Source of the DNA: Flavivirga aquimarina
GTDB taxonomy: Bacteria; Bacteroidota; Bacteroidia; Flavobacteriales; Flavobacteriaceae
Assembly (NCBI RefSeq): GCF_030540835.1
Contig: NZ_JAUOEK010000101.1
Coordinates: 1-64,000, forward strand
DNA length: 64,000 nt
Direction of reading: 5' to 3'
Part shown: positions 11,570-14,178 of the stretch, piece after piece
Position numbering within the stretch: position 1 is the first letter of the stretch
Layout: each line of letters begins with the position of its first letter
Position numbers and translations under genes: made by a program
The notes under the pieces: generated by a model
What the model saw: the letters and a program-made list of their open reading frames with translations, nothing else
What the model was told of the DNA's origin: nothing
Databases searched by the model: none

Positions 11570-12646
11570 ATGTTAGAGAAATTACAAATAGTAAAGCAGC
11601 GTTTTGATGAGGTTAGCGATTTAATTATTCAACCTGATATAATTACAGACCAAAAACGTTATGTAGAACTTAATAGAGAATACAAAGACTTGCGAATTCT
11701 TATGGATAAGCGAGAATTATACATAGAACTTACAGACAATTTAAAGGAAGCTGAATCCATTATTGCAGATGGGAGTGATGCCGAAATGATTGAAATGGCC
11801 AAAATGCAGTATGATGAGGCTAAAGAAGGTATTCCTAAGTTAGAAGAAGAAATAAAAGTGCTTTTAATTCCTAAAGACCCCGAAGATGCTAAAAATGCAG
11901 TGGTTGAATTACGAGCAGGAACTGGTGGTGATGAAGCGAGTATTTTTGCGGGTGATTTGTTTAGAATGTACACTAAATACTGTGAAGGAAGGGGTTGGCG
12001 CGTAGATACTGTAGATTTTAGTGAAGGAACTAATGGAGGTTTTAAAGAAATTCAGTTTGAGGTTAGTGGAGAAGATGTTTACGGAACTTTAAAATTTGAA
12101 GCCGGCGTACATCGTGTGCAACGTGTACCACAAACCGAAACTCAAGGGCGTGTACATACAAGTGCCGCCACAGTTATGGTATTTCCAGAAGCAGAAGAGT
12201 TTGATGTAGAAATCAACCCAAAAGAGGTACGTATTGACTTTTTCTGTTCATCAGGTCCAGGAGGGCAGTCAGTGAATACTACTTATTCGGCAGTACGTTT
12301 AACGCATATTCCTACTGGCTTGGTAGCACAATGTCAGGACCAGAAATCGCAACATAAAAATAAAGAGAAAGCCTTTAAAGTATTGCGTTCTCGATTATAC
12401 GACTTAGAGTTGGCGAAAAAACAAGAAGAAGATGCTGCTAAACGTGGTAGTATGGTGTCATCTGGAGACAGAAGTGCTAAGATTAGAACCTATAATTACC
12501 CACAAGGCCGTGTAACTGATCATAGAATAGGCTTAACACTTTACGATTTAAGTAATATTGTAAACGGAGATATACAAAAAATCATTGATGAATTGATGTT
12601 AGCTGAAAACACTGAAAAGTTAAAGGCTAATGATGATGTAATCTAA
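11570..12646 (+). CDS. prfA: Peptide chain release factor 1
   Basis: 358 residues; releases nascent protein at UAA and UAG codons. The GGQ hydrolysis motif is in [20 protein letters not shown] (about 223-242). The stop-codon tripeptide sits in [19 protein letters not shown], reading PQT where Escherichia coli has PAT, in line with RF1 (PxT) and not RF2 (SPF). The C-terminal [19 protein letters not shown] is also RF1-like. An Asn/Gln-type PrmC methylation target is present at the GGQ. Length is normal. A terminator follows directly. Confidence 0.96.
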
Positions 12647-12653
12647 AATATTT

Positions 12654-12677
12654 AGCCTCTACTTTGAGGCTTTTTTT
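12654..12677 (+). terminator. prfA terminator abutting the next start codon
   Basis: AGCCTC (12654-12659), loop TACTTT, GAGGCT (12666-12671), then seven T residues ending exactly at the A of the next ATG (12678). Ribosome access to that start on a read-through transcript would be limited by the hairpin. Confidence 0.75.
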
Positions 12678-13352
12678 ATGAAGAAAAAAACTTTAATATT
12701 CTTAGTTGCTATAGGAATTATACAATTAATACTTTGGAGTTTTAATATTCTTAGATTTTATAATTATCCATCTACAGCTAACGAACCTGGTATAAAGGAA
12801 GGGGCAAGAATTATTTGGACTAGTTTAGTAAAGCCAGAAAGACTAGATTTTGTTTGTTTTAATACAGAATTTGAAGATTTAGGGAAATTCGAAGCTGTTA
12901 TGCGATTAGTTGGTTTACCCGGCGATGTTGTACAAATAAAAAAAGGAAACCTTTATGTAAATAACTTACTCGTAGATAATGAAATTGAATTGAGAAGGCT
13001 TTATAAATGCAGTAAAGAGTATTTTTATGAAAATGTAGAACCTGTAATCAAGGATAATAATTTTAATTATTTTTTATATCATCAAGATTCAATGGTGGTG
13101 TACTTGAATGAAAGTCTAGTTAAGGAATTAAGGTTTAATCTAAAAAGAGATATTGAGCCTTTAAATGAAAGAAATGAAAATGTGAGTAGAGTTTATAATA
13201 AAGATTGGAATCTTGATAATTTTGGACCTTTGAAAATTCCTAAAAATAAATACTTTTTAATTGGAGATAATAGAAAGAATTCAATTGATTCAAGAATCAC
13301 AGGTTTGGTTGATAAAGAGGATATTTTAGGTACAATAATTTATATTTGGTAA
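12678..13352 (+). CDS. Signal peptidase I-like protein (S26 fold) lacking the Ser/Lys pair
   Basis: 224 residues with one N-terminal membrane segment and S26 boxes: [15 protein letters not shown] (box B), [22 protein letters not shown] (box D) and [11 protein letters not shown] (box E). In active enzymes box B reads SMxPT or SNEPT with the nucleophile Ser; here the codon is GCT (Ala) and the Thr is Gly. In box D the general-base Lys before Arg (KR.VGLPGD) is replaced by Met (ATG). Both catalytic residues therefore seem lost, while the fold and GDN box remain. It may be a non-catalytic paralogue with a chaperone or regulatory role, or a decaying copy. It overlaps nothing, and pyrF begins 7 nt later. 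Confidence 0.8.
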
Positions 13353-13359
13353 TAATTCA

Positions 13360-14178
13360 ATGGTAACAAACGAACTCATACAACAAATCAAAAAAAAGAA
13401 ATCCTTTTTGTGTATAGGATTAGATGTTGATTTAAATAAAATTCCAGAACACCTTTTAAAAGAAGAAGACCCTATTTTTGCTTTCAATAAGGCAATTATT
13501 GACGCCACACACCATTTATGTGTCGCTTATAAGCCCAATACAGCATTTTATGAAGCTTATGGTTTAAAAGGATGGAAAGCTTTAGAGAAAACCATTAATT
13601 ACTTAAATGAAAAGCATCCCGAAATTTTTACGATAGCAGATGCTAAACGAGGCGATATTGGTAATACAAGTACCATGTACGCCAAAGCATTTTTTGAAGA
13701 TTTGGCTTTCGATTCTGTAACTGTGGCGCCTTATATGGGTAAAGATTCCGTAGAGCCTTTTTTGGCTTTCGAAAATAAACATACCATACTTTTAGCATTA
13801 ACATCCAACCAAGGAGCGTTTGATTTTCAAACGAAAACAGTTGAAGGAAAAGAGCTTTACAAGCAGGTTTTAGAAACTTCTAAAACTTGGGAGAATTCAG
13901 AAAACCTAATGTATGTGGTTGGAGCTACTAAAGCAGAATATTTAGCAGATATCAGGCAAATTATCCCAGACAGCTTTTTGTTAGTACCAGGAGTTGGAGC
14001 CCAGGGTGGTAATTTACAAGACGTTTGTAAATATGGAATGAATCATCAAATAGGCTTACTTATTAATTCTTCTCGCGGGATTATTTACGCATCTAAAGAC
14101 CCCGATTTTGCCGAAGCAGCTGCTATAAAAGCCAAAGAACTTCAACAAGAGATGGAAGTAGAGTTAAAACGCTATTAG
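13360..14178 (+). CDS. pyrF: Orotidine 5'-phosphate decarboxylase
   Basis: 272 residues, the longer type-2 OMP decarboxylase of Bacteroidota. It makes UMP from OMP in pyrimidine synthesis. Landmarks are [12 protein letters not shown] (about 17-28), [12 protein letters not shown], the catalytic [13 protein letters not shown] (about 92-104, with the Asp-Lys-x-x-Asp array), [11 protein letters not shown] and the phosphate-binding [10 protein letters not shown] and [12 protein letters not shown]. It follows the S26-like gene by 7 nt, so it may be co-transcribed with it. Confidence 0.93.

What the first reader, a model, noticed from the sequence alone, without database searches (positions are those of the whole stretch)
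12678..13352. Signal peptidase I homologue lacking both catalytic residues
Box B has Ala (GCT) instead of the nucleophile Ser and Gly instead of Thr; box D has Met (ATG) instead of the general-base Lys, while GDNR..S.DSR is intact. Loss of both residues without frame damage suggests a selected pseudoenzyme. A terminator hairpin ends at its start codon.
Basis: partly seen in the sequence, partly recalled or inferred. Interest (0 to 1): 0.55.

Follow-up and report, generated by a model that had tools for sequence, protein, structure and literature searches.

The report
Dead signal peptidase kept by selection
This gene encodes a membrane protein built like the enzyme that trims export signals off secreted proteins, but with both of its cutting residues replaced; related bacteria keep similar cutter-less copies besides a normal enzyme, so it probably binds proteins rather than cuts them.

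Summary
Confirmed and extended. Window 12678-13352 (+) encodes an intact 224-aa type I signal-peptidase homologue with Ala34 at the Ser nucleophile and Met75 at the Lys base. The same genome has a canonical LepB and another S26 gene, both Ser/Lys. The nearest relative (another genus, 51% identity, same prfA-pyrF slot) has the same Ala/Met pair; dN/dS 0.31 and neutral simulation show constraint after the loss.

The gene belongs to a small S26 clade apart from LepB. Of 44 unbroken relatives, 27 lack both residues, 10 lack only Lys, 7 are Ser/Lys, none keeps Lys without Ser; 47 of 47 LepB rows checked are Ser/Lys. Twenty of 44 lie directly beside lepB; none of those has Lys, but the association is not significant.

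So it is a retained pseudoenzyme of a known kind (S. pyogenes SipA, S. aureus SpsA), here within a clade where the dyad is lost repeatedly. A non-cleaving binder of exported proteins, or a LepB partner, is the likeliest role (inferred). Against: the gene is patchy (2 of 12 genomes of its genus) and has Ser/Lys relatives in the same slot.

The parts
12678..13352 (+). Small S26 signal-peptidase-like pseudoenzyme, 224 aa, Ala34/Met75 in place of the Ser/Lys dyad
   Evidence: ORF and translation; PF10502 94.7 bits; TIGR02227 95.4 bits, cut-off 47; dyad table
12684..12740 (+). Single N-terminal membrane anchor, residues about 3-21
   Evidence: 19-residue hydropathy maximum 2.35, windows starting at residues 6 and 7; helix 3-21 in the model
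12777..12779 (+). GCT codon: Ala34 at the nucleophile Ser position (box B)
12900..12902 (+). ATG codon: Met75 at the general-base Lys position (box D)
13263..13295 (+). Box [12 protein letters not shown], intact
   Evidence: D197, R199, D204 and R206 kept in 27 of 27 members that lack both dyad residues
12654..12677 (+). Intrinsic terminator of prfA whose T-run ends at the ATG of the S26 gene
   Evidence: the same hairpin directly before the ATG in G039, G219 and G1136, and the hairpin without the gene in G016
11570..12646 (+). prfA (peptide chain release factor 1), upstream flank of the slot
   Evidence: name recalled from the sequence; conserved flank
13360..14178 (+). pyrF (orotidine-5'-phosphate decarboxylase), downstream flank, 7 bp after the S26 stop
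   Evidence: name recalled; conserved flank

Best explanation
A membrane-anchored protein with the type I signal-peptidase fold that can no longer cleave by the Ser/Lys mechanism and is kept for a non-catalytic job on the outer face of the inner membrane. Shown here: dyad replaced by Ala/Met, rest of the signature and the frame intact, an Ala/Met sister, constraint after the loss, intact LepB elsewhere in the genome, a clade with recurrent dyad loss. Inferred: it still offers a peptide cleft and holds pre-proteins or freshly exported proteins without cutting them, as proposed for S. pyogenes SipA, or it works as a partner that tunes the cell's real LepB. I hold 'retained pseudoenzyme' at about 0.85 and the binder/partner mechanism at about 0.5; the figure below is for the whole statement.
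For: Ala34/Met75 confirmed. Same pair in G039 at 51% identity. dN/dS 0.31 for that pair (dS 1.27, close to saturation), 0.056-0.244 for nine pairs of Gly/Gln members, 0.144 for a Ser/His-Ala/His pair. Neutral simulation: 0 of 500 replicates keep both frames open at 0.2, 0.4 or 0.6 substitutions per site per lineage. LepB control: Ser/Lys in 26 of 26 LepB rows covering both sites, from 23 genomes, and in 21 of 21 LepB beside family members. In the 27 members lacking both residues, P37, R76, D83, D197, R199, D204 and R206 are kept in 27 of 27. 20 of 44 lie directly beside lepB on its strand. Predicted fold: best second-look match is SipA 4n31_B, Z 16.8, rmsd 2.1, 121 aligned; SpsB 4wvi_A Z 15.5; E. 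coli 1t7d_A Z 14.2.
Against: No binding or expression data. The gene is patchy: 2 of 12 genomes of its genus have it, 10 have prfA next to pyrF. It is AT-rich (GC 0.267 against 0.372 and 0.354 for its flanks). The copy in the same slot of a congener (G010) is Ser/Lys and only 37% identical although the flanks are 97% and 89% identical. The dN/dS of 0.31 is above that of the Ser/Lys pairs in the slot, 0.18 and 0.24. It is not beside lepB in this genome. The link between lepB adjacency and Lys loss rests on 2-3 independent contrasts, and for loss of both residues the contrasts give no support. Peptide-cleft columns are only partly kept (the F84 position is Ala in 14 of 27). The model's residues 101-180 are untrusted. 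Some relatives are broken by stop codons (G199, G966; G856 has one in the matched stretch), so loss of the gene does happen.
Confidence: 0.62

Rival explanations
1. Relaxed relic: a dispensable second signal peptidase that lost catalysis and is drifting towards loss, caught before frame damage.
For: Patchy presence (2 of 12); relatives with stop codons; AT-rich; dN/dS of the Ala/Met pair, 0.31, is above that of two Ser/Lys pairs in the slot, 0.18 and 0.24.
Against: Same Ala/Met pair and intact frame in a second genus; neutral simulation excludes unconstrained divergence to that distance; dN/dS 0.056-0.244 in nine Gly/Gln pairs.
Confidence: 0.14
2. Still an enzyme, with a different catalytic arrangement (for example Ser32 or another residue as nucleophile), as His replaces Lys in the Ser/His members of the clade.
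For: 5 of 44 members have Ser/His, the pair known from eukaryotic and archaeal-type signal peptidases (recalled). Ser32 is Thr in the sister.
Against: Ala34 and Met75 cannot act as nucleophile or base; no Lys or His near box D is shared by the two Ala/Met genes; Gly/Gln, Ala/Phe and Glu/His members show no common alternative pair (by eye).
Confidence: 0.07
3. Dedicated subunit of LepB: the small protein pairs with LepB in the membrane and modulates cleavage, like a non-catalytic subunit of a signal peptidase complex (one form of the partner mechanism in the best explanation).
For: 20 of 44 members sit directly beside lepB (adjacency needs 3 changes on the tree), with LepB Ser/Lys in 21 of 21 and Lys of their own in 0 of 20.
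Against: The window gene is not beside lepB; contrasts too few for significance; most genomes searched lack a family member altogether (373 of 397); no complex could be modelled.
Confidence: 0.3
4. Sequencing or assembly error at the two codons.
For: One-base changes could make either codon.
Against: The independent genome G039 has Ala and Met at both sites.
Confidence: 0.01

Closest known systems
Streptococcus pyogenes SipA (PDB 4n31; PMC4049620, passages seen)
   Same: SPase fold, both dyad residues replaced (Asp48/Gly85), peptide cleft said to be conserved, no cleavage seen; top row of the second-look structure comparison (Z 16.8).
   Different: SipA serves pilus assembly and lacks the equivalents of Gly272 and Ser278; the window protein keeps both (G196, S202), has Ala/Met, and sits between prfA and pyrF in a genome judged to be Bacteroidota.
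Staphylococcus aureus SpsA (PMC12445088, passages seen)
   Same: A paralogue of the active signal peptidase that lacks two conserved catalytic residues and is dispensable.
   Different: Gram-positive; here the gene is on another contig than lepB. Sequence relation to SpsA was not tested.
Type I signal peptidase LepB (TIGR02227)
   Same: Family HMM over the cut-off, membrane anchor, boxes B, D and E in order.
   Different: No Ser or Lys; outside the LepB group in the tree (42-row clade 98/89); 224 aa against 525 aa for this genome's LepB.
Ser/Lys members in the same prfA-pyrF slot (G010, G219, G1136; G242 with only the prfA side seen)
   Same: Same slot, sister group in the tree (99/93), same terminator junction in G219 and G1136.
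   Different: Dyad intact, so presumably active; 37% identity for G010.

Membership tests
Type I signal peptidase (active, S26A / TIGR02227) | Peptidase_S26 sequence family | tested here: met
   PF10502 94.7 bits (cut-off 22.9), TIGR02227 95.4 bits (cut-off 47)
Type I signal peptidase (active, S26A / TIGR02227) | Ser nucleophile in box B | tested here: not met
   Ala34
Type I signal peptidase (active, S26A / TIGR02227) | Lys general base in box D | tested here: not met
   Met75
Type I signal peptidase (active, S26A / TIGR02227) | Box E GDNR..S.DSR | tested here: met
   [11 protein letters not shown]
Type I signal peptidase (active, S26A / TIGR02227) | SPase fold | tested here: met
   Ten-residue blocks 1-100 have pLDDT 83-94; SpsB Z 15.5, E. 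coli SPase Z 14.2. The alignment given to the predictor was mostly active signal peptidases, which favours this; residues 101-180 are low confidence
Type I signal peptidase (active, S26A / TIGR02227) | Cleaves signal peptides | not testable with these tools
   needs an assay
SipA-type pseudo signal peptidase | SPase homologue without Ser and Lys | tested here: met
   definition from PMC4049620 passages
SipA-type pseudo signal peptidase | Encoded in a pilus/sortase locus (location recalled) | tested here: not met
   neighbours are prfA and pyrF
SipA-type pseudo signal peptidase | Needed for pilus polymerisation | not testable with these tools
   needs genetics
SpsA-type inactive paralogue of the cell's signal peptidase | An active-type Ser/Lys paralogue in the same genome | tested here: met
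   LepB on contig C131 and a 382-aa S26 protein on C85, both Ser/Lys
SpsA-type inactive paralogue of the cell's signal peptidase | Next to the active paralogue (recalled for spsA/spsB) | tested here: not met
   different contig here; met by 20 of 44 relatives

The most novel reading that the evidence does not exclude
Bacteroidota carry a two-part signal peptidase system: LepB plus a small signal-peptidase-fold subunit that arose as a second enzyme, repeatedly loses first its Lys and then its Ser, and now selects or holds substrates for LepB, a bacterial counterpart of a signal peptidase complex with a pseudo-catalytic subunit.
Probability: 0.2. Interest if true: 0.78.

Novelty: new variant of a known kind. 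Interest (0 to 1): 0.52.

Why it matters
In the passages read here, pseudo signal peptidases are described for Gram-positives (SipA, SpsA). Here is a clade, in a lineage judged to be Bacteroidota, with every stage from intact Ser/Lys through Ser-only to neither, side by side with a LepB that is Ser/Lys in 47 of 47 rows checked. It is a natural series for asking how an essential protease fold is turned into a non-catalytic one, whether the base is lost before the nucleophile, and whether bacterial signal peptidases have regulatory partners. It also warns about annotation: a protein without the dyad scores twice the NCBIfam equivalog cut-off for signal peptidase I.

Tried and rejected
Shifted dyad: looked for Ser/Thr and Lys/His shared by the two Ala/Met genes; none fits. 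Plasmid origin: tblastn against plasmids found 45 records, 45 of 45 under 60% identity; the 20 listed are annotated signal peptidase I at 26-27% identity. Names: the scan of genome contigs with the single protein found no relative; with alignment A1 it kept the best 80 of a capped list, of which one, L049, is a close relative (a MAG contig titled Chlorobiota, of the same length, 5701, as the G242 contig) and the rest are 22-53% matches from other groups. So genus and species of the window stay unknown. Phylum draw: 1 of 296, only the window itself. Lys-to-aromatic with Ser278-to-Ala: 7 of 8 aromatic members have Ala there against 1 of 36 others, but only 3-4 independent contrasts, not significant. 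lepB adjacency: 0 of 20 adjacent members have Lys, again too few contrasts; for loss of both residues the contrasts show nothing. In one search, 12 of 12 genomes of the genus match at E 1e-3, but 10 of them only at 1.2e-6 or weaker, in frames of 390-534 aa; I take these for LepB and the other S26 protein, not checked one by one. The PF10502 match on C42 (25.6 bits) lies in what looks like a thioredoxin-type ORF and was set aside. Papers: the listings of ten searches showed none on a Bacteroidota pseudo signal peptidase; listings were capped and only open-licence PMC is held, so absence in print is not shown. Passages on T9SS (PMC10202324) and SpA trafficking (PMC13104630) gave nothing useful.

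Rows dropped before counts: two relatives broken by stop codons, G199 (L046, Gly/Gln) and the first of the G966 tandem pair (L146, Ser/Ser), are not among the 44. L147 (G856) is read as a 208-aa piece because of a TAG in the matched stretch. L047 and L150 are among the 44 but fall outside the 42-row clade; without them the counts are 27 neither, 9 Ser only, 6 Ser/Lys, 0 Lys only. Outside the clade, one of the 35 other rows of alignment A2, L128, shows Gly at the Ser column with Lys kept, so 'no Lys without Ser' is a statement about the 44 only. In one search three fragment rows that miss one or both sites were not counted, nor the reference row, which repeats the window genome's LepB.

Full report
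WHAT IS THERE. Window 12678-13352 (+) is an open frame of 224 codons between prfA (11570-12646) and pyrF (13360-14178) (the two flank names are recalled from their sequences). It matches Peptidase_S26 (94.7 bits, cut-off 22.9) and TIGR02227 signal peptidase I (95.4 bits, cut-off 47). Box B is [10 protein letters not shown] and box [13 protein letters not shown], so Ala34 stands at the nucleophile and Met75 at the general base; box [12 protein letters not shown] is whole. The assignment holds in a profile alignment to the solved SPase 4me8 and in two multiple alignments. One hydrophobic anchor lies at the N-terminus. The prfA terminator hairpin and its T-run end on the base before the ATG.

OTHER S26 GENES IN THE GENOME. 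A PF10502 search of the 184-contig genome finds this gene, a 525-aa LepB on C131 and a 382-aa S26 protein on C85 (a weak match on C42 lies in what looks like a thioredoxin-type ORF). Both have Ser/Lys. The cell therefore need not depend on the window gene for signal peptidase activity (inference).

RELATIVES. Searches by the protein or by alignment A1 (18 rows) gave matches in 20 of 299 genomes of the family (E 1e-8), 24 of 397 of the family (E 1e-25), 17 of 395 of the order, 6 of 395 of the class and 1 of 296 of the phylum, the window itself; the draws overlap and each count includes the window's genome.

DYAD STATES. One search lists 44 unbroken relatives, the window gene included, with 7 LepB/S26 outgroups. 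States: Gly/Gln 15, Ser/Lys 7, Ser/His 5, Ala/Phe 4, Ala/His 3, Ala/Met 2, Ser/Tyr 2, and one each of Ala/Tyr, Gly/His, Glu/His, Ser/Gln, Ser/Phe, Ser/Ser. Grouped: 27 have neither residue, 10 keep only Ser, 7 keep both, 0 keep only Lys. LepB as control: 26 of 26 LepB rows that cover both sites, from 23 of 24 genomes searched (G966 had no match at 1e-60), and 21 of 21 LepB lying beside family members are Ser/Lys.

TREE. With the two dyad columns removed, an IQ-TREE of 51 rows puts 42 small proteins in one clade (98/89) apart from LepB; L047 and L150 fall outside it. The window gene and G039 (both Ala/Met) are sisters (100/98), and these join the four Ser/Lys proteins of G242, G010, G219 and G1136 (99/93). 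Fewest changes on the best tree: 11 for Ser/not Ser, 4 for Lys/not Lys, 18 for the full pair. Twelve of 48 inner branches are open, so the counts are a guide, and they do not say which way each change went. That no member has Lys without Ser suggests that Lys goes first; this is an inference from 44 related sequences. One distant protein outside the clade (L128) does have Gly with Lys kept.

SELECTION. Nei-Gojobori dN/dS: G000-G039 0.31 with dS 1.27, near saturation; G000-G010 0.58; Ser/Lys pairs in the slot 0.18 and 0.24; Ser/His with Ala/His 0.144; a Ser/His pair 0.109; nine Gly/Gln pairs 0.056-0.244. Neutral simulation from either Ala/Met gene at 0.2, 0.4 and 0.6 changes per site and lineage left both frames open in 0 of 500 replicates each time, with 6-13 stops per lineage. 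So these proteins have been held since the loss. Among the 27 without dyad, P37, R76, D83, D197, R199, D204 and R206 are kept in 27 of 27; cleft columns are less uniform.

THE SLOT. In the genus 2 of 12 genomes have an S26 gene between prfA and pyrF (G000 Ala/Met, G010 Ser/Lys) and 10 have the two flanks side by side, six of them with a pair of inverted REP-like repeats in the gap (repeats judged by eye). G039, G219 and G1136 have the gene in the same slot, G242 beside prfA with pyrF not seen. The junction 'terminator, T-run, ATG' is the same in G000, G039, G219 and G1136, and G016 has the terminator without the gene. Flanks of G000 and G010 are 97% and 89% identical but their S26 proteins only 37%, while G000 and G039 share 51%. 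The gene tree thus disagrees with the flanks: either allelic replacement or an old tandem pair sorted differently. G966 does have a tandem pair.

LEPB NEIGHBOURS. Twenty of 44 lie directly beside lepB on the same strand: 14 of one genus of another family, 5 in the window's family, and G1034 between two lepB genes. None of the 20 has Lys, 17 have neither residue. On the tree adjacency needs 3 changes and the independent contrasts (2-3) are too few for a test; for loss of both residues they show nothing.

STRUCTURE. AlphaFold2 on the window protein with 35 search for related loci proteins gave mean pLDDT 74.5; ten-residue blocks 1-100 are 83-94, residues 101-180 are 38-63 and untrusted. Foldseek ranks SpsB and E. 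coli SPase first; the second look puts SipA 4n31_B at Z 16.8, SpsB 4wvi_A at 15.5, E. coli 1t7d_A at 14.2. The input alignment was mostly active-type signal peptidases, which favours the SPase fold.

COMPARISON. SipA of S. pyogenes has Asp48/Gly85 for Ser/Lys, a conserved peptide cleft, no detected activity, and is needed for pilus polymerisation (PMC4049620, passages). SpsA of S. aureus lacks two catalytic residues and is dispensable (PMC12445088, passages). The Q-rule papers on Bacteroidetes signal peptidase (PMC5837995, PMC10653852, passages) showed no inactive paralogue in the passages returned. The window protein resembles SipA and SpsA in lacking the dyad while keeping the fold; it is not filed as an active signal peptidase, because both dyad residues fail.

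VERDICT. The added finding is a clade in which an otherwise invariant dyad is lost again and again, often next to lepB. The role is unproven; a non-cleaving binder of exported proteins or a LepB partner is the best guess.

Noticed in passing
L132-L145 (14 genomes of one genus, other family of the order): A Gly/Gln pseudo signal peptidase follows lepB within about 10 bp or overlaps its end in 14 of 14 genomes, with dN/dS of 0.056-0.244 for nine pairs.
   Followed up: partly
window 12647-13359 and L008, L030, L033, L166, L175-L187: The prfA-pyrF slot holds Ala/Met genes, Ser/Lys genes, or nothing; inverted REP-like repeats often fill it. Flank and gene identities disagree between G000 and G010.
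   Followed up: partly
L146 (G966): Tandem pair of small S26 genes, the first (Ser/Ser) broken by TAA, the second Ala/Phe.
   Followed up: no
44-row table, P0001 columns 75 and 202: Where Lys is replaced by Phe or Tyr, the Ser at the E. coli Ser278 position is Ala in 7 of 8 members, against 1 of 36 others; few independent contrasts.
   Followed up: partly
L170 (G1059): A member with Glu at the nucleophile position and His at the base position.
   Followed up: no
L039 and L040: Two close relatives differ at the nucleophile (Ser/His against Ala/His), a recent change with dN/dS 0.144.
   Followed up: partly
L128 (contig titled Zixiibacteriota): A distant S26 protein with Gly at the Ser column and Lys kept, outside the clade.
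   Followed up: no
L224 (G998), L226 (G1040): LepB matches flagged with an in-frame TAG in two class-level genomes; could be neighbouring genes read through.
   Followed up: no
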